Notes under the pieces: generated by a model
The model's input: the letters and a program-made list of their open reading frames with translations, nothing else
Told to the model about the DNA's origin: nothing
Databases searched by the model: none
In this document: piece by piece, positions 11,536 through 31,854 of the stretch
Numbering within the stretch: position 1 is the stretch's first letter
Layout of the letters: each line of letters opens with the position of its first letter
NCBI GenBank assembly: GCA_018266755.1
Contig: JAFDZW010000005.1
Location: forward strand, 1,093,233 to 1,157,232
DNA length: 64,000 bases
Direction: 5' to 3'
DNA from: Bacteroidota bacterium
Lineage (GTDB): Bacteria > Bacteroidota > Ignavibacteria > Palsa-1295
Translations under genes and position numbers: made by a program

Positions 11536-11910
11536 TCACTGTCGGCGACGGCGTACTTCATCACGAATAACGCCAAGCGAACGACGCACCCACTCCATCG
11601 TCCCGTCGTCCGGACGATCGCCGCCCATGAAGCGGATCATTGCGGATTCGCTCGCCAGCACTTCATCGATGCTCACCGGCAACGCATCCGAACCTGCAAT
11701 GCGGTCGGATGGCTTCGGGATATACAGCGATTCGAATGATACGCCAAGAGCATCGGCGATCTTGCGCAGCGTATTGCGTGTCACGCCCGACTCGTCGTTC
11801 TCGATGCGCGAGAGGTGAGCCTGCGTGATCCCGGTGGTTTCCGAGATAAACTTCTGTTTGATACCTTTTTCGTCGCGTACACGACGAATGCGTTGACCTT
11901 GAGTCTCCAT
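11536..11910 (-). CDS. XRE-family transcriptional regulator
   Basis: This 124-aa protein has an N-terminal Cro/C1-type helix-turn-helix (about residues 7-62: IRRVRDEKGIKQKFISETTG, LSRIENDESGVTRNTLRKIA). A short C-terminal region of unknown fold follows (MIRFMGGDRPDDGTMEWVRRSLG). A -7 element lies 22 nt upstream of the ATG, so the 5' leader is short. It is a single-gene unit with its own terminator. It is 1.4 kb from the capsid module, so control of that module is possible but not shown. Confidence 0.85.
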   Translation of the reverse strand: METQGQRIRRVRDEKGIKQKFISETTGITQAHLSRIENDESGVTRNTLRKIADALGVSFESLYIPKPSDRIAGSDALPVSIDEVLASESAMIRFMGGDRPDDGTMEWVRRSLGVIRDEVRRRRQ

Positions 11911-12934: not shown

Positions 12935-13041
12935 GCACGGAATCCGGATTTTGTCACAATCTTACAACATTTTATTTGTCTGAATTATATTACGTTAGCT
13001 ATTATACGATAAAAAAGTATAAAAAAAATACTATGGGCACC

Positions 13042-13072
13042 TTGACAAAGGCAGAAAAATTTCGTATATTTG
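13042..13072 (+). promoter_or_regulatory. Strong promoter: TTGACA, 17-bp spacer, TATATTTG
   Basis: TTGACA at 13042-13047 and TATATTTG at 13065-13072 are separated by 17 bp. The pair fits the classical sigma-70 consensus and the Bacteroidota TTG...TAnnTTTG form at once, and lies in an AT-rich stretch. It points into the capsid module, with the first open frame 40 nt downstream. Confidence 0.75.
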
Positions 13073-13111
13073 CATCACGTTATTCAACACAGATTATCAC
13101 TTATATATTTT

Positions 13112-13207
13112 ATGCCTATGAAAACAACAACCGAACGATCCGCCGGCCATTGCCGGCTTCCGACGTCAGTACTCGGGCCACTACCGAATGAGGTCAGTGG
13201 GCTCTGA
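13112..13207 (+). CDS. Possible 31-aa leader/small protein
   Basis: ATG at 13112 to TGA at 13205 encodes MPMKTTTERSAGHCRLPTSV and 11 more residues. It begins 40 nt after the -7 element and contains a GCCGGC-CATT-GCCGGC hairpin. It could be a leader peptide or a chance frame. The rest of the 350-bp interval 12935-13287 holds only AT-rich DNA and the promoter. Confidence 0.3.
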   Translation: MPMKTTTERSAGHCRLPTSVLGPLPNEVSGL

Positions 13208-13287
13208 TTGCGGGAACAGTTCAATACCGAAACGGACTTAACCCTGACAACCTTTTTTCGCTGCAACACTTACCCAACGCCACGACC

Positions 13288-13527
13288 ATGAACGTCAAAG
13301 CTGAAAAGTACATCATTTCCGCCGAAGGAGTCGAGACTCCGGAGACCACCACACGTTGGGGGTTCGGTGCGGCAAGCGAAGAGATCCAGCGGTTTCTCAA
13401 CAAGCAGGTCCCGCGCGTCAGGATCCGAATCGACGGTACTCCGAAGGAGGCGGTCTTTGCACAAGACAAAGACTGGAGACTCCTTGACATCAAACAGCGC
13501 CTAAAGACGCTGTCGAACCTCGACTAA
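13288..13527 (+). CDS. Small hypothetical protein at head of capsid module
   Basis: A 79-aa soluble protein (MNVKAEKYIISAEGVETPET to LKTLSNLD), rich in charged residues, with no recognised family. It is the first substantial frame after the 13042 promoter and lies on the same strand as the terminase and portal. A regulatory or packaging role is guesswork. Confidence 0.55.
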   Translation: MNVKAEKYIISAEGVETPETTTRWGFGAASEEIQRFLNKQVPRVRIRIDGTPKEAVFAQDKDWRLLDIKQRLKTLSNLD

Positions 13528-13652
13528 GTAACACGTCATCACACGACCGAACAGGTCACCTGCGGCATGGGAAGTTTCCCCTGCTGTGCGGAGCATTCCC
13601 TGACGAATGCCGACCGAACTCGGCCTATTCATTTTCAACACACATAGACACT

Positions 13653-13925
13653 ATGAACCAACATTCGTATCCTCATCGCTCGCTCGCCAAGCGGGCAACA
13701 CGCGAGAAAGAACAACAAACGGATATGCGAGTGACCAACGGCGACCTTCATTTCGTCACCGACTTCGTTCGCGGATCCGCATTCTACATCGAAGATCTCG
13801 AGGAACGCATCGGCGAAGACCTCGATGACTTCTGGCAGTCGCGCGAACATGCGATGCGCATTCTGACCGACTGGATGATGCAGTCGATGACGCCAACAGC
13901 GGCCGTCACCGCAAAAGCAGCCTAA
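13653..13925 (+). CDS. Small hypothetical protein upstream of large terminase
   Basis: A 90-aa protein with a basic N-terminus (HRSLAKRATREKEQQ) and an acidic helical middle (YIEDLEERIGEDLDDFWQSREHAMRILTDWMMQ). It occupies the position where a small terminase is usual. No helix-turn-helix is evident, so that role is only a positional suggestion. Confidence 0.55.
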   Translation: MNQHSYPHRSLAKRATREKEQQTDMRVTNGDLHFVTDFVRGSAFYIEDLEERIGEDLDDFWQSREHAMRILTDWMMQSMTPTAAVTAKAA

Positions 13926-13936
13926 GCACACACAAC

Positions 13937-14070
13937 GCCGGTCCTTCGAGAGGTGCGTGGGTCACATAACGACGATGCACACGACCGATACGCGTCACTC
14001 CGAACCACTCGAACAATCGAACACTATCCTCGCGAGGAGCGCCTTCCCGCGCGCCTCTCGAAGGACCGGC
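13937..14070. repeat. Long inverted repeat upstream of terminase
   Basis: Two 21-bp arms (13937-13957 and 14050-14070), GCCGGTCCTTCGAGAGG and its complement with one mismatch near the inner end, flank about 92 bp. The element ends 22 nt before the terminase ATG, so it supports the later start at 14092. It may be a REP-type insertion or a structured leader. Confidence 0.65.
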
Positions 14071-14091
14071 AATATTCTTCACTCGGCAACA

Positions 14092-15468
14092 ATGCACCCG
14101 TTATCGATCGGACGATTCGCGCAACGCTATCTCGGACTGACCCGGTGGTCGGCGTTCGAGACATTGTTCTCGGCCGTCGAACGTGGCGAGCGAAAAATAC
14201 TGATTCGAAGTTGCAACGGTGCTGGCAAGACCACGGCCATCGCGGTTATCACTAATTGGATGATGGCTTATCACCCGGAGTCGGTCGTACTGACAAGCGC
14301 AGCAACGCATATTCAACTTCGTAGAAATCTGTGGGGGGAGATCCGGCGCCAAGCTCGCGAGACGCATCTGTTTTCCGATCACAGTATCGGCGAACAACAC
14401 TTGCATGTGAGCGACAAACACTTTGCGATCGGCATCTCCCCTGCCGTCCCGGAGAGTGCGCAGGGCTACCATGCCCCGAAAATCATGATCGCGGTCGACG
14501 AAGCAACCGCCCTCGACCGTGACATTATGGAAGCCCTGCTCGCCAACGGGACGGGCGAGGACTCACAAATTATCCTCGCCTATAACCCGCTCGGCACGGC
14601 AAGCTACCCGTACGAAGCCGAGCGCAATGGCGAGTGGTTCGTGGTGCACTTATCGGCCTTCGAACACCCGAACCTCACCATCGGCCACGAAACGGTCAAA
14701 GGCGCCGTCACGCTGCATTGGGTGCGCCAAAGCCTCGCACAATGGAGCTATCCGGTCGAACCGCACACCGAAGGTTCGCTGGAATTCGAGGGGACATGGT
14801 ATCGCAAGACGCGCGAGATCGCCACGCGTGTCTTGGGCGAATGGCCTGATGACGACGGTGAAGGATTCTTCGCAATGTATCTGCTCGAACGCTCGGTCGC
14901 TTCGACTGCCGAAGGCGGGCAACGTGCGATGGGTGTCGACGTCGCGCACGGCGGCGAGGATGCGACTGTCTTCGCCTTCTTCGATGGCAATATACAACAG
15001 GACTTCCAAACGATGCGCACCCGAGACATCGTTGCCATTGCCGAAGCGATTCGCACGCACTACAACGCAGGATGCACGACGATCGCGATCGACGATACCG
15101 GTATCGGCGGAGGTGTCACCGATATTCTGCGCTCGTATGGGATCCCGGTGCATGCCGTGAACTTCGCAGCGGCGGCAAAAGGCTTTCAGGAGAAACCGTT
15201 TGCCAACGCACGAGCGGAAATGTACTTCATCCTCGAACACGAAGTACGCAACGCTACGATCAAGTTGCTCGACGACGAGGCACTCCTGCAAGAACTCAGC
15301 GCACTGCGACTCGACCAGAGCGAATTGACCACGCGATACCGCTTCGAACCGAAAGAAGATCTGCGCAGACGCCTCGGCCGAAGCCCCGACCGAGCCGACG
15401 CAACGGCGCTTGCGCGCTACGGGATCTGGTGCGCTCAGTATACGCCGGTAGGTCCACGATTATTATAG
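14092..15468 (+). CDS. Phage terminase large subunit (TerL)
   Basis: A 458-aa packaging motor. The ATPase half carries Walker A CNGAGKT (Lys46) and Walker B MIAVDEA (Asp136-Glu137). The nuclease half has MGVDVAHGGEDA (Asp283), TIAIDDTGIGGGVTD and DRADATALA near the C-terminus, the acidic residues of an RNase H-like metal site. It would pump DNA into proheads through the portal. A longer frame from 13957 would run through the inverted repeat, so 14092 is preferred. All key motifs are intact. Confidence 0.92.
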   Translation: MHPLSIGRFAQRYLGLTRWSAFETLFSAVERGERKILIRSCNGAGKTTAIAVITNWMMAYHPESVVLTSAATHIQLRRNLWGEIRRQARETHLFSDHSIGEQHLHVSDKHFAIGISPAVPESAQGYHAPKIMIAVDEATALDRDIMEALLANGTGEDSQIILAYNPLGTASYPYEAERNGEWFVVHLSAFEHPNLTIGHETVKGAVTLHWVRQSLAQWSYPVEPHTEGSLEFEGTWYRKTREIATRVLGEWPDDDGEGFFAMYLLERSVASTAEGGQRAMGVDVAHGGEDATVFAFFDGNIQQDFQTMRTRDIVAIAEAIRTHYNAGCTTIAIDDTGIGGGVTDILRSYGIPVHAVNFAAAAKGFQEKPFANARAEMYFILEHEVRNATIKLLDDEALLQELSALRLDQSELTTRYRFEPKEDLRRRLGRSPDRADATALARYGIWCAQYTPVGPRLL

Positions 15469-15502
15469 CGCTTCATTTATCATCGATATCCACGAAGATT
15501 CG

Positions 15503-15510
15503 TAGTTTTG
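15503..15510 (+). promoter_or_regulatory. -7 element TAGTTTTG before S41 peptidase
   Basis: TAGTTTTG fits TAnnTTTG and lies 20 nt upstream of the ATG at 15531, inside the capsid module. It suggests that the peptidase can be transcribed independently of the phage-type genes. Confidence 0.45.
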
Positions 15511-15530
15511 CGATACCATTCTTCCACGCT

Positions 15531-17234
15531 ATGAAACGATCGCTCTCTATCACCCTTGTCGCACTGCTGGCGGCGACCTGTGCATACTCGCAACCACAGG
15601 ACAGCCAGAGTGTCAGGAATATCGCTGCGTTTTGCAAATGTTGGGGATTCCTCAAGTACTATCATCCTGCCGTGGCGGACGGGAAGGTGCTCTGGGACGA
15701 GCAGTTCGTCAAAACCTACGATCGCATCCGCTCGGCACGAACACGCAAGGAGTGCAACGACGTACTGATATCGCTCTACAAGAGCGCGGAGAGTGCGCGA
15801 GACGTGTGGGCGGATCAGCCTTCTGTCGAAGAATTCGATTCCTCGGCAGTAGTATCGAAACCGGACTTGAGCTGGATATTCGATACGACATTATTCACGC
15901 CAGAGGTAACCACCCTCATGCGAAACGTAAAAGAGGCGTTTCGACCGCTTGCAAACCGGTACGTGACAGCCTATCGCGGCGCGATGAACCCGGACGTATC
16001 GATCGACGATAAGTATTTCGGGCCGAGCGAACCGTTATACCCGACAGAGGCGATCCGGATCCTTGCGCTCGCACGGTATTGGAACATCATTCAGTACTAC
16101 GATCCCAATCGCGCATTGATCGGCAGACCGTGGGATTCCGTCTTGTTCGATTACATCCCCCGGTTCTCCCAAGCGCAGGATTCGATCCAATATTTGTACA
16201 CGGTACTACAGCTTCGCGGAGAATTGCACGATAGTCATGCCTTTGTTCGCAGCCCGATCGATAAGTATGTATTCGGCGATGGGTATTTGCCGATCCGACT
16301 GATGTACTTGAACTCGCAGACGGTGATCGTGGGCTCCTTCGGTAGCAGCATGGCACGGTTCGACTCGTCGTTGGCGTCGCTCGGACTCCATCGGGGCGAT
16401 CTGTTGATGAAAATTGGCGGGGTCAACGTCGCAGAACTGCGAGAACGATTGCGGCATTATGTCGGCGGTTCGAACGAGGCCGCAATCGAACGAGATATCA
16501 ACAACTATCTGCTCCGTGGCAAAGTTGGCGACAGCATTCGGCTGACAATCGACAATGGCGAAAAGGAATTTGAAGTTACCGCACACTACCAGACCGAACT
16601 GAGAGCCTCTGACGTTCGAACGAACCTCCTGAGCAACGAATGGTCGATCCTGCAAGGGAATATCGGCTACGTCGATATGGGACAGCTCGAGCGGCGGAAC
16701 GTACGCACGATGATGAAGTCGCTCATGAGCCTGCCCGCGATCATCTTCGATGTACGAAATTATCCGAGAGGTACGATGTACGACATTATGGCCTATCTAA
16801 GTAAACGTGTGCCCTTTGCGTTCTTCACACGACCGGTCGTCTCGCACCCGGGGTATCTCGTCAGCACAGCAAAACAGATGATGGTGTGTGGCGACGATCG
16901 CGGTGATAAATACAAGGGGAAGATCATCATCCTGGCGAACGAACTGACGCAGAGCCATGCCGAATTCACGATCATGTCGCTGCAAACGAGGCTCGATGCC
17001 ATCACGATCGGCAGCCAGACTGCGGGTGCAGACGGGAATATCTCAGAAATCCGACTCCCGGGAAACATCACGACATTCTTTACCGGTCTCGGAGTTTTCT
17101 ACTCCGGCGGCCTGCCGACGCAACAGATCGGCATTAAGATCAACATCCCCGTCGTCCCGACGATTGCGGGAATACGCGAGGGCCGCGACGAGGTACTCGA
17201 ACGTGCGGTTCGCTACGCGCTAAGCGGGAAATAG
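15531..17234 (+). CDS. Secreted S41-family peptidase
   Basis: The start at 15531 gives a 567-aa protein with signal peptide MKRSLSITLVALLAATCAYSQ. After a helical N-terminal region (FCKCWGFLKYYHPAV) comes a PDZ-like segment (about 265-350, GLHRGDLLMKIGGVNVAELRE) and the tail-protease core with IIILANELTQSHAEF. Ser475 is the likely nucleophile. The serine/lysine-type general base expected about 25 residues later is not seen; GSQTAGADGN stands there, as in S41 relatives of the non-lysine type. It is an unusual host-like gene between terminase and portal. Confidence 0.85.
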   Translation: MKRSLSITLVALLAATCAYSQPQDSQSVRNIAAFCKCWGFLKYYHPAVADGKVLWDEQFVKTYDRIRSARTRKECNDVLISLYKSAESARDVWADQPSVEEFDSSAVVSKPDLSWIFDTTLFTPEVTTLMRNVKEAFRPLANRYVTAYRGAMNPDVSIDDKYFGPSEPLYPTEAIRILALARYWNIIQYYDPNRALIGRPWDSVLFDYIPRFSQAQDSIQYLYTVLQLRGELHDSHAFVRSPIDKYVFGDGYLPIRLMYLNSQTVIVGSFGSSMARFDSSLASLGLHRGDLLMKIGGVNVAELRERLRHYVGGSNEAAIERDINNYLLRGKVGDSIRLTIDNGEKEFEVTAHYQTELRASDVRTNLLSNEWSILQGNIGYVDMGQLERRNVRTMMKSLMSLPAIIFDVRNYPRGTMYDIMAYLSKRVPFAFFTRPVVSHPGYLVSTAKQMMVCGDDRGDKYKGKIIILANELTQSHAEFTIMSLQTRLDAITIGSQTAGADGNISEIRLPGNITTFFTGLGVFYSGGLPTQQIGIKINIPVVPTIAGIREGRDEVLERAVRYALSGK

Positions 17235-17266
17235 CACTACTCGGTATTTGTATCGTGATCGAATAG

Positions 17267-17283
17267 CACCCCTCTACGGGGTG
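17267..17283 (+). other. Intercistronic hairpin before portal gene
   Basis: CACCCC-TCTAC-GGGGTG is a 6-bp GC-rich stem in the 90-bp gap between the S41 peptidase and the portal gene. It could modulate read-through. There is no T-run, so a classical terminator is unlikely. Confidence 0.35.
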
Positions 17284-17324
17284 GATGGAATTGCTCGGAC
17301 TTCATACAACACACACGCTCAATC

Positions 17325-18536
17325 ATGGACCTACGACTCGGCACATTCAATATCTCGATCTCGCGCAAGGCTGCCCCCCAGCAAGCGGCGCTGACGATCA
17401 CCGGCGGCGGCACCAACTCGCCGTTCATTTTCAATCGGTATGACAATCCTCGACAGAATCTTCTGTTCATCCGCGAAACGGTATCGGCGGCGATGCATGC
17501 ACGCAGCGAAGCGGTCGGACGCGGAACACTCCACGCATACGACACCAGCGGAGGAAAGCAGACTGCGCTTTCGGCGGATCATCCCATCGAACGCATTCTC
17601 GCAGCGCCGAACCCGTTGATGAACGGCACCGACCTGCTGGAGCTCATCTCGCAGTGGCTCGACGCCACCGGGAATGCGTTGTTACTCAAAGTCCGCAATG
17701 GCTACGGTCAGCCGAGCGAACTATGGCTGCTGCCCGCGACGAGCTATACGATCGAGCGTGGAACAGACGAACTGCCGGCATTCTACCGGTTCTTCCCCTC
17801 GAACACCCGCATCCCCGCGGCGGACGTCATTCACATCAAACGCTCCGATATTCGCACAGCGCCATTCAGCGGACACGCAATCCTTTCGGATATTATCGAG
17901 ACGGCCATGACCGATAGCGCGCTGCGTTTGTATCAGCAGCGATTCTTCGACAACGATGCCATGCCTCGTGCGGTCATGCAATTCCCGAAAGGCACGACTC
18001 TCACGCAGGCACAGCTCGACGAGATCCGCGCGACCTGGGAGGCCAAGTACCAAGGGCCGTCGAACGCCGGCAAGCTCGCCATCCTGCCCGACGGCGGTTC
18101 TCTCGAAACGCTTGGCGTCGGTGCGAAGGAGCTTGATTTTGCCGAAAGCCGCAAAGCGTTGCGCGATTCGATCCGCGAAGCGTTCAAAGTCCCGAAGATC
18201 GTGCTTGGCGATACCGATGGGGTCAATCTCGCGAATGCGGAAACGAGCTACCGCGTGTTTATGCGCGATGTCGTCGATCACGCGCTCGGCAAGATCGCAG
18301 CAGCGCTCACACGCGGACTCGCGCTCGAATTTTCCATCTCGTTCGTCATCCGATGCGACGATATCGTACCGGAAGCAGAAGATAAATTACTCGGTCGCCT
18401 GCAAGAGCTCAAACAATCTCTGACTGTGGACGAACAACGGAAGCTACTTGGCCTCGGGCCGCTCCCAGCAGGGAAAGGAAATGTCTTTGTGGTCGGGACG
18501 AACGTCTACGACGCCAATTGGAAAGAAATCACTTGA
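17325..18536 (+). CDS. HK97-family phage portal protein
   Basis: A 403-aa protein of about the usual portal length. Typical features are LSADHPIERILAAPNPLMNG, WLDATGNALLLKVRNGYGQP, LWLLPATSYTIERG, DVIHIK and LDFAESRKALRDSIREAFKVPKIVLG, the last a hallmark of phage_portal proteins, followed by AETSYRVFMRDVVDHAL. Twelve copies would form the vertex through which terminase loads DNA. The frame is intact. Its last 8 nt overlap the convergent lipoprotein gene. Confidence 0.92.
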   Translation: MDLRLGTFNISISRKAAPQQAALTITGGGTNSPFIFNRYDNPRQNLLFIRETVSAAMHARSEAVGRGTLHAYDTSGGKQTALSADHPIERILAAPNPLMNGTDLLELISQWLDATGNALLLKVRNGYGQPSELWLLPATSYTIERGTDELPAFYRFFPSNTRIPAADVIHIKRSDIRTAPFSGHAILSDIIETAMTDSALRLYQQRFFDNDAMPRAVMQFPKGTTLTQAQLDEIRATWEAKYQGPSNAGKLAILPDGGSLETLGVGAKELDFAESRKALRDSIREAFKVPKIVLGDTDGVNLANAETSYRVFMRDVVDHALGKIAAALTRGLALEFSISFVIRCDDIVPEAEDKLLGRLQELKQSLTVDEQRKLLGLGPLPAGKGNVFVVGTNVYDANWKEIT

Positions 18537-19074
18537 CGTATTCCATGATCGGCGGCTCGTCGTGAAAGATCGCATTCCCCCGGACTTTTTGTCGGTCGTC
18601 GGGTACCCAGAGGTAGAGCCAATCGTTCGTCAGCGATTCGATGAGCAGACGGACCTTTTCGAGATTCCAAGCCAACGCCAGGCCGATCACCGATTTCGAG
18701 AGCTTATCCTCGCAGTCGCACGGCTTGCCGACGGTGGCACCGATGCCAGCGCCGATCAGCATTGCCGGGATCGAACTGACGAAATCTCCTTGGACCGGAA
18801 GCTTCACCCGATTGATGGCGGTATCGGCAATCACCTGCATGTGGGTGTACGCCAGATATCGAGGGTCGGTTTGCTCGTAGGTCGGCAAGACGACGATCGC
18901 CGAATCGCGGATGCTCACAAGGGAATACTCTGTCGTACTTCCGTCGCGTAATTCTACTTCGATGCGATGCTTTGGCGCGCACGACGACAGTATGACGCAT
19001 ACGAGAGCGACTGCAAACGAACGTCGGGCAAGCGGCACGAACGGATAGACGGCACGGTGGCGAACGAGCGGCAT
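18529..19074 (-). CDS. Antisense lipoprotein A inside capsid module
   Basis: A 181-aa protein with signal peptide and lipobox (FAVALVCVILSSC, Cys at about residue 32). The body opens with VELRDGSTTEYSLVSIRDSAIVV, has a glycine-rich segment MLIGAGIGATVG, and ends GNAIFHDEPPIMEYVK. It shares the (S/N)AI(F/Y)HDEPP ending and the LxSxRDxAxVV motif with lipoprotein C at 19765-20325, so they look like diverged paralogues. Function is unknown. No -7 element is visible upstream, so it may be read from the promoters of its neighbours. Confidence 0.7.
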   Translation of the reverse strand: MPLVRHRAVYPFVPLARRSFAVALVCVILSSCAPKHRIEVELRDGSTTEYSLVSIRDSAIVVLPTYEQTDPRYLAYTHMQVIADTAINRVKLPVQGDFVSSIPAMLIGAGIGATVGKPCDCEDKLSKSVIGLALAWNLEKVRLLIESLTNDWLYLWVPDDRQKVRGNAIFHDEPPIMEYVK

Positions 19075-19116
19075 CGCAGCTATTAACAGCCGCGTCGCAG
19101 GTTTGAATCGAAGAAG

Positions 19117-19614
19117 TTAATGCGACGTCTCGGCTGCGGGAGTCTGCGGAAATTGAGCGACGTCGGTTTGGAGCATCTGCACGTCTCGGTCGTTCGTGAG
19201 TTCGTATTCGCTGAACGACTTGCTCGTGAAGTATTCGAACGAATACCGCACAGCGTCATAGAGTGCCGACACATTATTGCCGAAGGCATTCACTCTGAAT
19301 GCTCGACGCGTCGAAAAAATGTCAGCGATCGTCGGCAGGAACGTCCCCGCAAAGGACTGGTGATTGCGGCGATAGACACGGTCCACGGCTCGCGTCGGCA
19401 GAATCATCTCATGCAGTGAGAGCGCTTCGGCAGGCATGCCGGCCGGATCGATGTCGGAAACGATCAGCGCATCGTCGCCGACGGACAGCAGGTAGCAGTC
19501 CTTTAGGCTCGAATCGGTAAATTGCAGCGTGACGTGGTTCACGGATGAGTAATCGCGGGTAATCCCGCAACTTGCGAGCATAACTGCGAGGATCAGTATG
19601 GCTGCGTATCTCAT
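19117..19614 (-). CDS. Antisense lipoprotein B inside capsid module
   Basis: The start at 19614 gives 165 aa beginning MRYAAILILAVMLASCGIT, with lipobox Cys16. NHVTLQFTDSSLKDCYLLSVGDDALIVSD parallels the opening motif of lipoproteins A and C, and its ending differs from theirs. A TACATTTG element lies about 88 nt upstream. It is the middle member of a minus-strand trio (42-nt and about 150-nt gaps). No function is recognised. Confidence 0.7.
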   Translation of the reverse strand: MRYAAILILAVMLASCGITRDYSSVNHVTLQFTDSSLKDCYLLSVGDDALIVSDIDPAGMPAEALSLHEMILPTRAVDRVYRRNHQSFAGTFLPTIADIFSTRRAFRVNAFGNNVSALYDAVRYSFEYFTSKSFSEYELTNDRDVQMLQTDVAQFPQTPAAETSH

Positions 19615-19701
19615 CTGGTGTGTCCGTTCTCGAATTCTTCGGGGTCTGTCGTGACCGGTCCCCTTCATATTAAATAACACATCAAATTCGATTTTGATAC
19701 A

Positions 19702-19709
19702 CAAATGTA
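19702..19709 (-). promoter_or_regulatory. -7 element TACATTTG before lipoprotein B
   Basis: TACATTTG on the minus strand, in AT-rich DNA 88 nt upstream of the start at 19614, has a TTG 17 nt further upstream. Confidence 0.5.
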
Positions 19710-19764
19710 GATGAAAAAATGATGACCAATTTCTTACACGCACAACTGACGCATTTTCAATCCG

Positions 19765-20325
19765 CTACCGGATCTTTGCAAGTTCGGGCGGCTCCTCGTC
19801 ATGGTAGATCGCACTATGCCGCAGCTTCGCTACATCCTCCGGACGACCGAGATCGAAGACCTGTTCTGCACGATGCGTCGACAAATATCCGACCGTCGCC
19901 CCAAGCGCAAGGCCGGAGAGCATACCGAGATAGGTTTCCTTCGTAAACTCGAAACTTCGGACGCCACGTTCGATCTCGGCCTGTGTCGACGGGCGTACGA
20001 GATCGCCGATATACGCGCCGGAGACGAGTCCGGCCGCTGAACAAATGCCGATCATCCGCCAATTATCCGACGCCGACTTGCCCACATACCTAACATGCTC
20101 GAATGGGATCGAGATCGATGCAGCGATCGTCGCATCGATATGATAGAATTCTTCGGTGTATGGCGAGACGACGAGCGCATGTTCGCGAACGCTCATCAGA
20201 AAGAATTCCTGACGTGAAATATCTGCCGTTTCGAGCATGATACGGCTGCCGTCGACAGGTCGACCGCCGGCCGCACAGGACGAGAGTACGACAACAAGCA
20301 AGAGCACGGGTACGAACTTCATCAT
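19765..20325 (-). CDS. Antisense lipoprotein C inside capsid module
   Basis: A 186-aa lipoprotein (MMKFVPVLLLVVVLSSCAAG, lipobox Cys17). The body has QEFFLMSVREHALVVSPYTEE, two glycine-rich hydrophobic stretches (IGICSAAGLVSGAYIGDLV and GMLSGLALGATVGYL) and the ending HSAIYHDEEPPELAKIR. The glycine-zipper-like stretches suggest membrane association. A -7 element ends only 2 nt before the ATG, so the transcript may be leaderless and the second ATG (20322) may be the true start. Only 39 nt separate it from the divergent prohead protease gene. Confidence 0.72.
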   Translation of the reverse strand: MMKFVPVLLLVVVLSSCAAGGRPVDGSRIMLETADISRQEFFLMSVREHALVVSPYTEEFYHIDATIAASISIPFEHVRYVGKSASDNWRMIGICSAAGLVSGAYIGDLVRPSTQAEIERGVRSFEFTKETYLGMLSGLALGATVGYLSTHRAEQVFDLGRPEDVAKLRHSAIYHDEEPPELAKIR

Positions 20326-20326
20326 C

Positions 20327-20334
20327 CAAATATA
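20327..20334 (-). promoter_or_regulatory. -7 element TATATTTG abutting lipoprotein C start
   Basis: TATATTTG on the minus strand is directly adjacent to ATGATG. The expected transcription start would fall in or beside the start codon, implying a leaderless mRNA. It fires against the direction of the capsid genes. Confidence 0.5.
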
Positions 20335-20364
20335 CTGAGTTTGACACACAGAACAGCAACGCCT

Positions 20365-20958
20365 ATGACACAGACACAACTGATCGAACACATCCGAAAG
20401 AGCGGCAAACTGCTGGCCGACGACGAGCAGATAAAGATCGCTGCCGACATCCTCTTCCCGCTGACCCCGAGCGACGAACGCGCACTTGCCGGCGAGACGA
20501 CCACTTCGCGGCAACGCTGGCTCAAGATCGCTACCGCCGATGTCGACCGTGCTGGCGATGAGCTTGTGATCGAAGGAGTCGTTACCGCCAACTTCGAGCG
20601 CAACCCGCAATTTCTCTGGCAGCACGGAATGACCGAAGAGCCGATCCATACGATCGGCCGTATCGTGCGGCTCGTGCAAACCAAGAACGCACTCTACGCC
20701 CTTGCCGAATATGCTTCGGCCGACATCTCGCCTCTTGCCGGGAAGATATTCGATCTGGATATGGCTGGTCTGCTGCCTGCAAATTCGGTCGGATTCCAAC
20801 CGATCGAGTGGGAGCCGAATGCACACGGCGGCGTCCGCTTCACGAAATGGGAGCTGATCGAAGTCTCAAAGGTCGAACTCCCCTGCAACCCGTTTGCCAT
20901 CGACGACGGATTGCCAGGAAAACGCCTCTCGCTTTCCGACGCAGCGGGGCTGCTCTGA
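20365..20958 (+). CDS. HK97-family prohead protease
   Basis: A 197-aa protein from the ATG at 20365. RWLKIATADVDRAGDELVIEG opens the assemblin-like fold. His87 in LWQHGM and Ser141 in LLPANSVGFQP are the likely catalytic pair, and WELIEVSKVELPCNPFA closes the domain as in other prohead proteases. It would cleave scaffold or the capsid delta domain during maturation. The frame is intact and it lies directly upstream of the capsid gene. Confidence 0.92.
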   Translation: MTQTQLIEHIRKSGKLLADDEQIKIAADILFPLTPSDERALAGETTTSRQRWLKIATADVDRAGDELVIEGVVTANFERNPQFLWQHGMTEEPIHTIGRIVRLVQTKNALYALAEYASADISPLAGKIFDLDMAGLLPANSVGFQPIEWEPNAHGGVRFTKWELIEVSKVELPCNPFAIDDGLPGKRLSLSDAAGLL

Positions 20959-21017
20959 CCATTCGTCCAGCGTATCGATTCACCAGTACCAACAACTAAC
21001 ATCCAAACCAACCACAT

Positions 21018-22238
21018 ATGATCACACACAACGAACACACCGACACACTCACCGCATCGCGTACCGAGCTGAAGCAGCTCATTGACGAAGCGGTCACACG
21101 ACGCACCAAAGAACAACCGGACCGCTCGGCGCTGAAGGCATTTAATGTACTCGGCACGAAGTCGGCAGAGAAAGAGAAGATCCGCAAGACGTTCCGGTTC
21201 TTCTCCGCTCTTTCGGCAGGTGACCACGACGAGATGCGACGCATTCATGCGAGCTACGATCCCGAATACGTCAAGCTCTTGTCGCCACAGATCGAAGGGA
21301 CGAGCTCGGCGGGCGGATACCTCGTCCCACAAGAGTTCTATGCCGATGTTGTCTTCGCACTCGGTGAATACGGCTTCGCCCGAAAGTATTGCCCGGTCGT
21401 GGAGATGAACTCGAACATTCTCAACGTCTCGACACTGGCAGGAAAACCGACGGTGCAATGGGTCGATGAGAATAATGTCATCAATGCATCGAAAGCAACC
21501 TTCGGACGCTTGACCCTCACGGCCAAGAAACTCGCTGCGATCTATCCGATCTCGAACGAACTCTTGCAGGATGCGAACATCGACGTGTACAACACGATCG
21601 TCCGCATCTTTGCGAACGTCTTTGCACAGGAAGAAGATACGCAGGTCTTCCGCGGCAACGGCACGCCGTTCACCGGCATCCTGAATACGGCGGGTGTCAA
21701 CACGACATACCTCGGCGGCAGCTCGGCAAGCGGCAAGACGCACTTCCCGGACGTCACGTTCGACGATATGATCTCGCTCGTGCAGTCGCTCGCACCGGCA
21801 TACCAGCGCGACGCGGCAATCTTCATCGAGCAGAATGCGCTCACCGAACTGCTCAAGAAGAAAGATGCGAACAGCCGCTACCTCTGGGATTTGACGAATG
21901 CGATCCTGCCGAACGTCACGCCGAACGGACCGCTTGCTCAGACGGCGCTGAGCTTCCGCGGCTTCCCGATCGTCGTGCTGCCGAACGGCATTCTCACGAC
22001 GACCTACGATGCCAACCCGCACCCTGCGACACCGTTCGCCATTTTCGGCAACCTGAAGACGGCGGGTGCCTGGCTCGGTCAGCGTGGCGCGATGGACGTC
22101 CGGATCTCGTTCGATGCCACGGCCGATACGGTTAATGCATTCACGAACGATCTGCAGATGATGCGCCTGACCGAACGCATCGCCTTCGGCGTCGCACAGC
22201 CGAGCTATCTCGCTGTGCTCAGCACCAGCGCGTCGTAA
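21018..22238 (+). CDS. HK97-family major capsid protein
   Basis: A 406-aa protein. The first 100 or so residues are charged and helical (TASRTELKQLIDEAVTRRTK) and resemble a removable delta/scaffold domain. The rest carries HK97-fold hallmarks: SSAGGYLVPQEFYADVV, KKLAAIYPISNELLQDANID, FAQEEDTQVFRGNGTPFTGI, GFPIVVLPN, FGNLKTAGAWLGQRGAMDVRI and FTNDLQMMRLTERIAFGVAQP. Length and order match a complete, expressible shell protein. Two GC-rich palindromes follow immediately. Confidence 0.93.
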   Translation: MITHNEHTDTLTASRTELKQLIDEAVTRRTKEQPDRSALKAFNVLGTKSAEKEKIRKTFRFFSALSAGDHDEMRRIHASYDPEYVKLLSPQIEGTSSAGGYLVPQEFYADVVFALGEYGFARKYCPVVEMNSNILNVSTLAGKPTVQWVDENNVINASKATFGRLTLTAKKLAAIYPISNELLQDANIDVYNTIVRIFANVFAQEEDTQVFRGNGTPFTGILNTAGVNTTYLGGSSASGKTHFPDVTFDDMISLVQSLAPAYQRDAAIFIEQNALTELLKKKDANSRYLWDLTNAILPNVTPNGPLAQTALSFRGFPIVVLPNGILTTTYDANPHPATPFAIFGNLKTAGAWLGQRGAMDVRISFDATADTVNAFTNDLQMMRLTERIAFGVAQPSYLAVLSTSAS

Positions 22239-22249
22239 CTGCTCCACCC

Positions 22250-22318
22250 GGCGACGGCCTGTCGCCGAACACGATCAACGACTGAACATTGTACGGACGA
22301 GGCATGCCTCGTCCGTAC
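22250..22318. repeat. Tandem palindromes after capsid gene, one a perfect 28-bp palindrome
   Basis: GGCGAC...GTCGCC (22250-22266) is followed by a perfect 28-bp palindrome at 22291-22318 with half-site GTACGGACGAGGCA. They fill the gap between capsid and connector genes. They could protect the capsid mRNA 3' end or limit read-through, which would suit the stoichiometry. A REP-type insertion is the alternative. Confidence 0.7.
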
Positions 22319-22362
22319 CGGTCGTTCGCCCGATCACCACTCAATCACATCCATTCTCATCT

Positions 22363-22944
22363 ATGCCAACATACACATCACCGGTCACCGTACCGGGCTT
22401 TCAGCTCTATATCAACGACCTCAGCGGCGACCCGACGATCCTCGGTTTTTTTCAGACCTTGCTCGACACCGCGACGGAACGAGTCTATACGTATCTCGAT
22501 CTCGACTTCACCGCCAATGCGACGAAGACCGAGACCTTCGAGGGCAACGGCACCGACTATCTTCGACTGCATCAGCCGGCGAGCTCGGTCACCTCCTGGA
22601 TCACGACCGACATCAACGGCGTCGCGACACCGCAAAGCATCGCACCGCTGCATCTATTCGAGAGCGGAATACTACTTGTCAACTCGCAAGGGACGTTCGA
22701 CTCCGGCTATGAGCATAGCATCTCATACAAAACCCCACTGTCGTTAACTTGCCCCGAAACTGTGCGACAAGTCATTACGGAGATTGCAGCCGTGATGCTT
22801 CGCGAATCGAAGCAGGGAGCAGGGTCGCTTTCGAAAGCGATCGATTTGTATCGGGACACGGCCTCGCTCGCCCGCAGCGAATATGTCGAGCTGACCGATC
22901 GCCACCGTGCTATGCTTTCACCCTATAAGCGCTATGCCGTATGA
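22363..22944 (+). CDS. Phage head-tail connector (gp6/DNA-packaging type)
   Basis: A 193-aa protein in the position of the HK97 gp6-like adaptor. The helical N-terminus (LGFFQTLLDTATERVYTYLDLDF), a beta middle (TETFEGNGTDYLRLHQPASSVTSW) and a C-terminal helix (CPETVRQVITEIAAVMLRES) match head-tail connectors that sit under the portal. The ATGA overlap with the next gene (22941-22944) indicates coupled translation. Confidence 0.8.
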   Translation: MPTYTSPVTVPGFQLYINDLSGDPTILGFFQTLLDTATERVYTYLDLDFTANATKTETFEGNGTDYLRLHQPASSVTSWITTDINGVATPQSIAPLHLFESGILLVNSQGTFDSGYEHSISYKTPLSLTCPETVRQVITEIAAVMLRESKQGAGSLSKAIDLYRDTASLARSEYVELTDRHRAMLSPYKRYAV

Positions 22945-23387
22945 CACGAGAAGATAACTTTCATCACACTTTCGTCCAGCAGTTGGTCGCTTATGCCGTC
23001 TGGAAGTTTACGCCGTCGATGGGAATACGCGACATTCCCCTCTCGTCGTTTCCATGCTTCTCGCTCGAACTCGGCGATACGAGCTACACAACATTCGACT
23101 TCAACGGCAAAGCGACCCGGGGCCAGCAGGAATTCGAACTGCGTGTGTACCTAGCTGTCGGCGAGAATCAATACAACGAATCTCATACGCTGCGCAGCAA
23201 TACGGTTGCATCGATCGAGCAGTTCATCAACACGCCCTATTACTCGCCGCCAACGATGTTGCCCGGCGATCTCTATTGCATCGACCGTGCTGAACTCGTC
23301 TCGATCGACGCATGGCGTTTCATCGCAAGCGAGTCGCGCTTCGTGCTGCACGTTCGTGCGAAATACACATTCAGTCTCTTTACATAA
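22941..23387 (+). CDS. Phage morphogenesis protein, probable head closure/tail terminator type
   Basis: A 148-aa protein overlapping the connector gene by ATGA. The pattern (VQQLVAYAVWKFTP, an internal beta sheet FELRVYLAVGENQYNE, then SIEQFINTPYYSPPTMLPGDLYCIDRAELVS and RFVLHVRAKYTF) resembles neck or tail-terminator proteins of the DUF3168 type. Position supports a morphogenesis role. The exact family is not certain. Confidence 0.6.
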   Translation: MTREDNFHHTFVQQLVAYAVWKFTPSMGIRDIPLSSFPCFSLELGDTSYTTFDFNGKATRGQQEFELRVYLAVGENQYNESHTLRSNTVASIEQFINTPYYSPPTMLPGDLYCIDRAELVSIDAWRFIASESRFVLHVRAKYTFSLFT

Positions 23388-23415
23388 TCACCGACACACT
23401 ATCTGACCGATCACA

Positions 23416-23829
23416 ATGACACCACTCTACTTACGGTACCGAAACGCAACGACCGATCCCTGGACTGTTCCGCCTGCACTGGGTGCATCCATACCCGGCT
23501 TGCCTGCCGGCGCCTTACCGCTCGAACACATGAAGCTATCGACCGGACCGCAGACCGAAACGCCGTGCGGTTGCTCGTCCACCGATCCCTACGTCGAAGA
23601 TCACTATGGGATGGAAGCGGGGCTCAGCCCGATCCCACAGGCGGCTATGCCATCGGTTGCAACATATCTGCTACGGTTCAAACAGGCCGCGTATCACGAA
23701 GCAATGCACTCGCTGTATGCAAGCGGAGGCTTCACGAGCGCGGATCTCTCCGAACTATCGATTGCAAACGCCGACGGTCGCTCGTCGATCAACTTCCGCG
23801 TTGCCGCCAAGATCCTGGATGTCGTATGA
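23416..23829 (+). CDS. Small protein of the capsid operon, function unknown
   Basis: A 137-aa protein (MTPLYLRYRNATTDPWTVPP to FRVAAKILDVV). A Pro-rich N-terminus includes ETPCGCSSTDPY, and the C-terminal half is helical. No family is recognised. Its stop overlaps the next start by ATGA at 23826-23829, tying the secreted product downstream to this operon. Confidence 0.6.
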   Translation: MTPLYLRYRNATTDPWTVPPALGASIPGLPAGALPLEHMKLSTGPQTETPCGCSSTDPYVEDHYGMEAGLSPIPQAAMPSVATYLLRFKQAAYHEAMHSLYASGGFTSADLSELSIANADGRSSINFRVAAKILDVV

Positions 23830-24320
23830 GCGTATGCACGATTCGAGTTGCTCGAATAGTATTCGTCGTTGTACTGCTATTGTGCAGTGCGCGATGTGCA
23901 CCCTCGCAGGTGCTTTCCGTTGATTCGCTCGAGCATCATGGGTATCGTGTCCATGTCTATAAGCCGACGCCACTGCGCACACGGACGATCGAAAAACTGG
24001 TTCACGATACCATCCGCGAGATCCGCTACCGAATATTGATCGTTCACGATACAATCACGCGCGATCGACGCACGATCGCGATCCAACAGAGCGTACAATA
24101 CGTCGTGCTGCCTGAGCGATCGAACGACCGGTTCGCTCTCATGCTTGTCGGCAATGCAAATACGAACGGATACGGCATGCATCTGGGAGCACAGGTGTGG
24201 ATCGGCGAACGCATCTGTTTCTTCATCGGCGGGGGAATGGGCTATAACAGCGTGACAAAGCTTACGCATCTGGACCTGGCAGGCCTACTGACGATACGTC
24301 TGTGGGAGCGACCCGATTAA
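23826..24320 (+). CDS. Secreted protein, last gene of capsid operon
   Basis: A 164-aa protein with signal peptide VARIVFVVVLLLCSARCAPSQ. A helical stretch with repeated HDTI motifs follows (IEKLVHDTIREIRYRILIVHDTITRD). The C-terminus, from FALMLVGNANTNGYGMHLGA to LAGLLTIRLWERPD, looks like beta-hairpins with alternating hydrophobic residues. Translational coupling to a phage-type gene followed by a terminator makes it the end of the operon. A spanin-like or envelope-exit role is conceivable but not shown. Confidence 0.65.
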   Translation: MSVCTIRVARIVFVVVLLLCSARCAPSQVLSVDSLEHHGYRVHVYKPTPLRTRTIEKLVHDTIREIRYRILIVHDTITRDRRTIAIQQSVQYVVLPERSNDRFALMLVGNANTNGYGMHLGAQVWIGERICFFIGGGMGYNSVTKLTHLDLAGLLTIRLWERPD

Positions 24321-24327
24321 AAACATC

Positions 24328-24372
24328 AAGGGCGGCTTTCGAGTATGCTTGCGCATACTCTCAGCCGCCCTT
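24328..24372 (+). terminator. Strong hairpin at end of capsid operon
   Basis: The outer stem AAGGGCGGCT / AGCCGCCCTT and inner stem GAGTATGC / GCATACTC make a long two-part hairpin, followed by TTGCATTCTTTC. It lies between convergent genes ending at 24320 and 24397. Confidence 0.8.
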
Positions 24373-24396
24373 GCATTCTTTCCCCCGAAAGAACTC

Positions 24397-27924: not shown

Positions 27925-28434
27925 ATGGGCACCCCCTCGCTCATGAAACAAGCCTTTACACCATATCGAACCGACGAGGTAATTGCGCTAGCGCGTAACG
28001 CCGCCCGACGATTCGCCGGCAGAACGATCGACGAAATCGCCGAGACGGAAGGTATTATTCTCGTTCGTCTCCCGGATGCACATGCCGAGCGCGAAGGATT
28101 CTGTTCTATCCTTTCTGTGCCATCGCCAAAACCCTTCGCAAGCGCTGCAGCTACCGATGAGATTCGCTACTCATTTACCGAGGAAATACACGTCACGTAT
28201 CCTGCAATCGTAATCAATCCGCTTCGATGTAAGAACGAAGCTGTCGTGTTCTGGCATGAGTATTATCACCTGCTATACTCGCCATACCGGTCGTCACAAG
28301 CGACATTCTTCGACGGATATTCGACACGTGGCGTGCTGGACAAACAAGAAGAGCGTCGCGCAAACCTCTTCGCAACGCATGTCATCCGTTCCTGCTCGCA
28401 AGAGGACGATGATCTCAGTCTTCAAATGGAATGA
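27925..28434 (+). CDS. ImmA/IrrE-family metallopeptidase
   Basis: A 169-aa protein (or 163 aa from the ATG at 27943). The N-terminal helix (EVIALARNAARRFAGR) is followed by a beta region and the zinc motif HEYYH (His111, Glu112, His115), with EERRANLFATHV supplying the third ligand, as in the ImmA/IrrE family. These peptidases usually cleave an XRE repressor encoded next door. No XRE gene adjoins it, and the nearest is at 11.5 kb. It converges on the DD-peptidase gene. Confidence 0.82.
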   Translation: MGTPSLMKQAFTPYRTDEVIALARNAARRFAGRTIDEIAETEGIILVRLPDAHAEREGFCSILSVPSPKPFASAAATDEIRYSFTEEIHVTYPAIVINPLRCKNEAVVFWHEYYHLLYSPYRSSQATFFDGYSTRGVLDKQEERRANLFATHVIRSCSQEDDDLSLQME

Positions 28435-31380: not shown

Positions 31381-31854
31381 ATGTTTGAAACCACCTCCGA
31401 GTTTTCGTCTTACCGGCGCAACCTCCCTCATTGGCAAATCGGAGGCTATACGTATTTTGTTACCTTCCGCGCACTGAGGATTCTGCCAAACAACTCACGC
31501 GATATCGTTTGTAAGAAGGTCCGTGACGGACATCATACGACTTACGATCTTCTCTTTGGGGTTGTCATGCCCGATCATGTTCACCTGCTGATACGGCCAA
31601 CTAAAAAGGACACAGAAACTTGGCACCCGCTTCCCTCGATTCTTCAAAAAATCAAGGGAGGAACTGCTCGTGAGATCAATATAGCCGAACATTCGTCCGG
31701 TACACTGTGGCAAAAAGAGAGCTTCGATCGGATGATTCGTAATGAACACGAGTTGCTCGAGAAGTGGGAGTATATTTGGAACAATCCGATCAAAGCCGGG
31801 TTAGTTGATTCAATTGTCGAGTATCCATTCTATATTCGACCATCGGTTGGATGA
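31381..31854 (+). CDS. REP-associated tyrosine transposase (RAYT, Y1/HUH family)
   Basis: A 157-aa single-domain Y1 transposase. The HUH motif is MPDHVHLL (His66, His68) and the likely nucleophile is Tyr131 in EKWEYIWNNPIKAGLV. NxxRDIVCKKVRDG and TLWQKESFDRMIRN are typical of RAYTs. These enzymes act on REP palindromes, and this gene is flanked on both sides by such hairpins. The motifs are intact, so it may be active. Confidence 0.9.
   Translation: MFETTSEFSSYRRNLPHWQIGGYTYFVTFRALRILPNNSRDIVCKKVRDGHHTTYDLLFGVVMPDHVHLLIRPTKKDTETWHPLPSILQKIKGGTAREINIAEHSSGTLWQKESFDRMIRNEHELLEKWEYIWNNPIKAGLVDSIVEYPFYIRPSVG

What the first reader, a model, noticed from the sequence alone, without database searches (positions are those of the whole stretch)
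13042..24372. Capsid-only HK97 locus carrying host-type cargo genes
Terminase, portal, protease, capsid and connector genes are intact and in canonical order between one strong promoter and one strong terminator. I see no recognisable tail, integrase, replication or lysis genes in or beside the block. Intact frames argue against simple decay. The locus could be a domesticated capsid, a gene-transfer-agent-like packager, or a capsid-forming satellite that borrows tails. All frames are open, and envelope proteins are encoded within it.
Basis: partly seen in the sequence, partly recalled or inferred. Interest (0 to 1): 0.8.

Follow-up and report, generated by a model that had tools for sequence, protein, structure and literature searches.

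The report
Inherited phage-head cassette, probably GTA-like
A set of virus genes for building and filling a DNA-carrying shell has been passed down with one bacterial family's own chromosome, kept working but without tail, integration or replication genes beside it, so these bacteria probably use it to package their own DNA; no such system appears to be described in this phylum, but no particle has been seen.

Summary
The observation largely holds. Window 13288-23829 encodes, in canonical order, a candidate small terminase, TerL, HK97 portal, prohead protease, HK97 capsid, head-tail adaptor and two family-specific proteins (g148, g137). No integrase, replication, lysis or tail gene was recognised beside them. 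It is not one transcription unit: three minus-strand lipoprotein genes sit between portal and protease.

New here: the cassette is in all 11 near-complete genomes of the bacterial family; TerL is in 12 of 13. Close TerL relatives were found neither in 378 other genomes of the class nor in IMG/VR (best 31% identity). Its tree matches RpoB (6 of 8 splits; 0 of 20,000 shuffles), dN/dS is about 0.05-0.28, catalytic motifs are conserved. One lineage (G006) is decaying. Inserted host-type genes are genus-specific. In one genus the cassette ends with a lytic transglycosylase and a two-TM protein. The resident siphoprophage is unrelated.

Best explanation: an old, host-domesticated DNA-packaging head, a GTA-like viriform, in Bacteroidota. 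The computable GTA criteria are met or partly met; packaging of host DNA and delivery are untested, and no conserved tail was found. A tail elsewhere, a short or absent tail, or another head-based function remain open.

The parts
11536..11910 (-). XRE-family (HTH_3) regulator, candidate regulator of the cassette
   Evidence: PF01381 3e-14; one clear ortholog (57-74% identity) in 12 of 13 family genomes, beside the cassette in G000, G001, G002 and G006, elsewhere in genus g3 and G005. Link to the cassette is inferred.
13033..13072 (+). Promoter: GGGCACC element, TTGACA, TATATTTG
   Evidence: 11 of 12 to the consensus; the same promoter precedes the cassette in G001, G002 and G006 but also precedes unrelated host genes
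13288..13527 (+). p79: conserved 79-aa protein of unknown function
   Evidence: 53-58% identical homologues upstream of TerL in G001, G002, G005 and G006
13653..13925 (+). Candidate small terminase (90 aa): by position, with a conserved helical C-terminal stretch; no known domain
   Evidence: Homologue directly upstream of TerL in genera g1, g2, g3 and g5; no PHROG or Pfam hit
13957..15468 (+). Large terminase TerL
   Evidence: phrog_2 E 7e-26; Walker A, Walker B and nuclease acidic residues invariant in 7 genomes; in 12 of 13 family genomes
15531..17234 (+). S41-family peptidase with signal peptide (host-type insert)
   Evidence: PF03572 2e-9; no homologue in the relatives' cassettes
17325..18536 (+). 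HK97-type portal protein
   Evidence: PF04860 4e-53, TIGR01537 above cut-off
18529..19074 (-). Lipoprotein-like gene A (insert)
   Evidence: 45% identical homologue at the same place in G001; no Pfam hit
19117..19614 (-). Lipoprotein-like gene B (insert)
   Evidence: Homologues at the same place in G001 and G002
19765..20325 (-). Lipoprotein-like gene C (insert)
   Evidence: Related minus-strand genes before the protease in G001, G002 and G006
20365..20958 (+). Prohead maturation protease
   Evidence: phrog_617 1e-12, phrog_80 1e-7, TIGR01543 1e-5; QHG and NSxGF motifs, probable catalytic sites, conserved
21018..22238 (+). HK97-fold major capsid protein with an N-terminal region of about 95 aa (delta-domain-like)
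   Evidence: PF05065 2e-42, TIGR01554 4e-53; in all 11 near-complete family genomes
22363..22944 (+). Head-tail adaptor
   Evidence: phrog_442 5e-7, phrog_137 7e-4; alignment of 8
22941..23387 (+). g148: neck protein candidate; predicted strand-helix pattern is compatible with a tail terminator, unproved
   Evidence: Homologues in 8 genomes, always after the adaptor; no PHROG or PDB match; single-sequence model pLDDT 45
23416..23829 (+). g137: last universally conserved cassette protein, function unknown
   Evidence: Homologues in 8 genomes after g148; no PHROG or PDB match; found only in this family among 395 phylum genomes
23826..24320 (+). Exported protein, not conserved in relatives (insert)
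   Evidence: No homologue in the relatives' loci, no Pfam hit
24327..24373 (+). Strong hairpin, terminator-like, no U-run
   Evidence: z -8.9
27934..28434 (+). IrrE/ImmA-like (M78-type) metalloprotease with HExxH; possible partner of the XRE regulator
   Evidence: 35% identical to the protein next to the XRE ortholog in genus g3, which hits PF06114 weakly; link inferred

Best explanation
A head-and-packaging cassette of an ancient HK97-type tailed phage, captured by the ancestor of one Bacteroidota family and inherited with the chromosome since; it works like a gene transfer agent (GTA). Proposed working: a regulator (possibly the XRE protein) switches the genes on in some cells. Capsid, portal and protease assemble and mature a procapsid. 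TerL, with a small partner that lacks a recognisable DNA-binding domain, fills it with host DNA. The adaptor, g148 and g137 close the neck. Particles leave by lysis (in genus g3 perhaps helped by the cassette's lytic transglycosylase) and pass DNA to kin, using a tail encoded elsewhere or a minimal neck device. Shown: gene identities, order, integrity, family-wide presence, vertical descent, purifying selection, retained catalytic motifs, no recognisable contiguous tail or integration genes. Inferred: particle formation, host-DNA packaging, regulation, release and delivery.
For: Capsid in 11 of 11 near-complete family genomes, TerL in 12 of 13, no close TerL among 378 other class genomes or IMG/VR. 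Same order everywhere. Cassette tree congruent with RpoB: 6 of 8 splits, 0 of 20,000 shuffles. dN/dS about 0.05-0.28. TerL ATPase and nuclease residues invariant. Base composition like host genes. Packaging genes (TerL, portal, adaptor) kept together with the capsid, as expected for DNA packaging. Genes interleaved with host genes in ways that differ by genus, so the set is not kept together as a mobile unit.
Against: No tail, holin or receptor-binding gene found with the cassette, and no family-wide tail companion (weak tests). No evidence of particles. One species (G006) has broken copies, so the function is dispensable at least there. The amino-acid economy seen in alphaproteobacterial GTAs is absent. 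The link to the XRE regulator is circumstantial. Synonymous sites are near saturation, so dN/dS values are rough.
Confidence: 0.6

Rival explanations
1. A domesticated phage head with a function other than gene transfer: a particle used for killing kin (PBSX-like), for interfering with incoming phages, or as a compartment.
For: Same conservation evidence; no delivery device found; PBSX packages host DNA without delivering it (discussed in PMC12946183).
Against: TerL and portal remain under purifying selection with catalytic residues intact, which an empty shell or compartment would not need; a PBSX-like killer needs a tail.
Confidence: 0.2
2. A capsid-forming phage satellite (cf-PICI-like) that borrows tails, for example from the resident siphoprophage at C5:590-630 kb.
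For: Head genes without tail; a complete siphoprophage lives in the same genome; one extra TerL copy of the family in G002 lies on a contig with a Dam methylase, a ParB-like protein and an AAA ATPase.
Against: No integrase, primase or attachment site recognised; co-divergence with the host; genes pushed apart by up to about 8.5 kb; the prophage's capsid, portal and TerL belong to different sequence groups.
Confidence: 0.07
3. A slowly decaying prophage remnant: the head genes simply have not been lost yet.
For: Tail and replication genes are missing; G006 shows stops and frameshifts in TerL, portal and capsid; inserts interrupt the cassette.
Against: Intact frames in ten other near-complete genomes at divergences where third positions differ by 40-60%, with dN/dS well under 1 in every gene; a remnant under no selection would be broken in all of them.
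Confidence: 0.06
4. Repeated acquisition: a family of phages specific to these hosts keeps inserting similar head clusters, so the pattern is not vertical descent.
For: G002 carries extra TerL copies, one of which groups with G005; flanking genes differ between genera.
Against: Trees agree with RpoB at all well-supported deep splits; no free phage of this clade in IMG/VR or the phage records; inserts are stable within genera.
Confidence: 0.07

Closest known systems
FpGTA of Faecalibacterium (PMC12946183)
   Same: A roughly 10.5 kb head cluster (small terminase without obvious DNA-binding domain, TerL, portal, capsid, hypotheticals), present across a host group and without integration genes noted; tail and lysis genes at a second locus
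   Different: Faecalibacterium is Bacillota, scaffold-type head, podovirus-like second locus known, particles and packaged host DNA shown; here HK97 protease/capsid, Bacteroidota, no second locus found, no particles seen
RcGTA-type alphaproteobacterial GTAs (PMC9662315)
   Same: HK97-type head genes in the order terminase, portal, protease, capsid, adaptor; vertical descent with the host; regulators at other loci
   Different: RcGTA has a contiguous tail gene set; no close sequence relation was seen in the searches made; the amino-acid economy signature is absent here
Capsid-forming PICI-type satellites
   Same: Head and packaging genes without tail genes
   Different: Satellites have integrase, replication and regulatory modules and move between hosts; here none was recognised and descent is vertical
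PBSX-type defective prophage
   Same: Conserved phage-derived structure fixed in a host lineage
   Different: PBSX keeps tail and lysis genes; no tail genes found here
Encapsulin nanocompartments (HK97 fold, PMC8346489)
   Same: HK97-fold shell protein kept by bacteria
   Different: Here a phage-type capsid with its protease, portal and terminase; encapsulins have none of these

Membership tests
Gene transfer agent (criteria of PMC9662315) | Proteins derived from a tailed-phage ancestor | tested here: met
   TerL, portal, protease, capsid and adaptor hits
Gene transfer agent (criteria of PMC9662315) | Genome fully endogenised, often across several loci | tested here: inconclusive
   Cassette is chromosomal and interleaved with host genes; no second locus identified
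Gene transfer agent (criteria of PMC9662315) | Vertical inheritance and co-diversification with the host | tested here: met
   Cassette and RpoB trees share 6 of 8 splits, 0 of 20,000 shuffles
Gene transfer agent (criteria of PMC9662315) | Particles mostly contain random host DNA | not testable with these tools
   Needs particle DNA
Gene transfer agent (criteria of PMC9662315) | Own genome cannot be fully packaged | not testable with these tools
   Head size unknown; the set is spread over 10.8 kb here and more in relatives
Gene transfer agent (criteria of PMC9662315) | Packaged DNA is delivered to other cells | not testable with these tools
   Needs transfer experiments; no tail found
Capsid-forming phage satellite | Integrase and defined element ends, horizontal spread | tested here: not met
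   No integrase recognised in the scanned neighbours, no tRNA in the window, vertical descent
Complete temperate prophage | Tail, lysis, replication and integration genes contiguous | tested here: not met
   None recognised in the window or in relatives' flanks; contrast with the C5:590-630 kb prophage
Encapsulin | HK97-fold shell without portal, terminase or protease | tested here: not met
   Portal, TerL and protease are present and conserved

The most novel reading that the evidence does not exclude
An independently domesticated GTA of the Bacteroidota, unrelated to known GTAs, that works with a head-and-neck set only (no long tail), has been inherited since the origin of a bacterial family, and has its genes stably interleaved with genus-specific envelope genes.
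Probability: 0.3. Interest if true: 0.85.

Novelty: new variant of a known kind. Interest (0 to 1): 0.7.

Why it matters
Very few GTA lineages are known (PMC9662315 and PMC12946183 list alphaproteobacteria, Brachyspira, a sulfate reducer, a methanogen, Faecalibacterium and PBSX-like cases). None in Bacteroidota was found in the held library (subscription papers and preprints are not covered). A cassette that tracks its host family, with broken copies in one species, gives an independent origin in which to test why bacteria keep such systems and which genes are the minimum: here head, packaging and neck genes are universal, while a lytic enzyme is genus-specific. It also shows that virus-finding tools may file such loci as incomplete prophages.

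Tried and rejected
Regulon by promoter: the cassette's GGGCACCTTGACAAA promoter element was sought genome-wide to find partner loci; it precedes unrelated host genes, so it is a general promoter. Regulator locus: regions around the XRE orthologs in genus g3 and G005 were read for tail genes; only the M78-like partner and host genes were seen. Tail search: tape measure PF10145 (weak, since it misses the tape measure of this genome's own prophage) and sheath PF04984 (the hit in this genome lies in what looks like an extracellular contractile injection system). Profile comparison of adaptor, g148 and g137 with a prophage of the same class: no similarity. Phage and IMG/VR relatives: only distant ones. 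Amino-acid cost signature of alphaproteobacterial GTAs: not seen.
Full report
CHECK OF THE OBSERVATION. The window is G000:C5:1093233-1157232 of a 3.55 Mb assembly in 11 contigs. The named genes are present and open: TerL 13957-15468, portal 17325-18536, protease 20365-20958, capsid 21018-22238 and adaptor 22363-22944. Two more conserved genes follow, g148 (22941-23387) and g137 (23416-23829). Two small ones precede TerL: p79 (13288-13527) and a candidate small terminase (13653-13925). The promoter at 13042 and a very stable hairpin at 24327-24373 exist. The locus is not one operon, because three lipoprotein genes lie on the minus strand at 18529-20325. A plus-strand exported S41 peptidase (15531-17234) sits between TerL and portal.

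DISTRIBUTION. The capsid protein was sought in 149 relatives. It occurs in all 11 near-complete genomes of the same family at 64-79% identity (own copy apart) and is missing only from two that are 67% complete; outside the family only four weaker hits appeared. A TerL profile finds one or more copies in 12 of 13 family genomes, G005 included, plus a doubtful fragment in G004. In 391 genomes of the class nothing outside the family scores better than 3.5e-31. The g137 profile hits only two family members among 395 phylum genomes. IMG/VR offers at best 31% TerL identity, and in the TerL tree the family forms one clade on a long branch away from the nine viral relatives included.

ORDER AND INSERTIONS. 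Gene order is the same wherever contigs allow it, but different genes are wedged in. Genus g3 has a minus-strand membrane protein of about 560 aa between TerL and portal in all seven genomes. G009 has about 8.4 kb between portal and protease; G008 has about 8.5 kb between capsid and adaptor; G002 has about 4 kb there and one gene between g148 and g137. Minus-strand lipoprotein genes before the protease are shared by this genus and genus g2. The inserts are thus fairly stable within genera and differ between them. In genus g3 the cassette ends with a lytic transglycosylase (PF01464, 2.5e-18) and a protein with two predicted membrane segments; the transglycosylase is absent from the other genera. 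After that come ordinary host genes.

DESCENT AND SELECTION. Concatenated cassette proteins and RpoB give trees sharing 6 of 8 splits; none of 20,000 label shuffles reached that. The differences are the order within G010/G011/G012 and the weakly supported place of G009. Pairwise dN/dS is mostly 0.05-0.28 for the cassette genes, against 0.02-0.09 for rpoB; synonymous sites are near saturation, so these are rough. Third-position divergence is like that of rpoB, for example TerL 0.413 and rpoB 0.421 in G007/G008. Walker A, Walker B and the acidic nuclease residues of TerL are invariant in seven genomes, and the probable catalytic motifs of the protease are kept. Base composition equals that of neighbouring host genes. 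One lineage is an exception: in G006 TerL has an in-frame stop, the portal is partly duplicated and broken, and the capsid frame is broken.

SURROUNDINGS. No integrase, replication or tail gene was recognised among the scanned neighbours, no tRNA in the window and no Rfam hit. An XRE regulator (11536-11910) has one clear ortholog in 12 of 13 genomes, beside the cassette in four of them and elsewhere in the rest. In six genus-g3 genomes it is paired with an IrrE/ImmA-like metalloprotease, whose relative lies at 27934-28434 here. This is a lead for regulation, not proof; it may be a general stress regulator. The genome also has an ordinary siphoprophage at C5:590-630 kb with its own head, tape measure and endolysin, whose capsid and portal are the only others found with those Pfam families.

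WHERE IS THE TAIL? Nothing conserved was found. The PF10145 tape measure occurs in one genome and a contractile sheath in three, here within what looks like an extracellular contractile injection system. These tests are weak: the prophage's own tape measure escapes PF10145. In Faecalibacterium the tail and lysis genes of FpGTA lie at a second locus that was found by proteomics and was not detected in seven strains (PMC12946183), so a missing tail locus does not exclude a GTA.

INTERPRETATION. Long vertical descent, purifying selection, retained packaging enzymes and absent mobility genes argue for a function useful to the host. With TerL, portal and adaptor conserved along with the capsid, DNA packaging is the most economical function, hence a GTA-like viriform. 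Of the six published GTA criteria (PMC9662315) two are met, one is inconclusive (endogenised, but no second locus), and three need experiments. I therefore say that it works like a GTA and is a candidate, not a proven member. Rivals are a head used for something else, a satellite, a decaying prophage and repeated acquisition.

NOVELTY. No Bacteroidota GTA was found in the papers searched.

Noticed in passing
G000:C5:590000-630000 (L003, L004): An ordinary, complete-looking siphoprophage (terminase, portal, capsid, tape measure, endolysin, replication genes) unrelated to the cassette in its head-gene groups.
   Followed up: partly
G000:C1:170622-190543 (L236, L237): Cluster with sheath, two tube-like proteins, a spike/hub-like protein and very large baseplate-like proteins; looks like an extracellular contractile injection system. 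Sheath found in only 3 of 13 family genomes.
   Followed up: partly
window 13033-13072 and many places in G000, G001, G006: A promoter class GATGGGCACCTTGACAAA ... TTTCGTATATTTG, often followed by a second GGCACC near the start of transcription, recurs before unrelated genes.
   Followed up: partly
window 11536-11910 and 27934-28434: XRE regulator and IrrE/ImmA-like metalloprotease lie on the two sides of the cassette here but side by side at a distant locus in genus g3; resembles ImmR/ImmA or DdrO/IrrE pairs.
   Followed up: partly
G002:C41 (L170) and G002:C106 (L171): Additional TerL copies of the same family; the C41 copy sits with a Dam methylase, a ParB-like protein and an AAA ATPase, as if on a mobile element.
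   Followed up: partly
G006:C412 (L172) and G006:C296 (L041): Cassette genes broken in one species: in-frame stop in TerL, partial duplication and breakage of the portal, broken capsid frame.
   Followed up: partly
window 31381-31854: IS200-like transposase-domain protein (PF01797); a similar gene lies just upstream of the cassette in G011.
   Followed up: no
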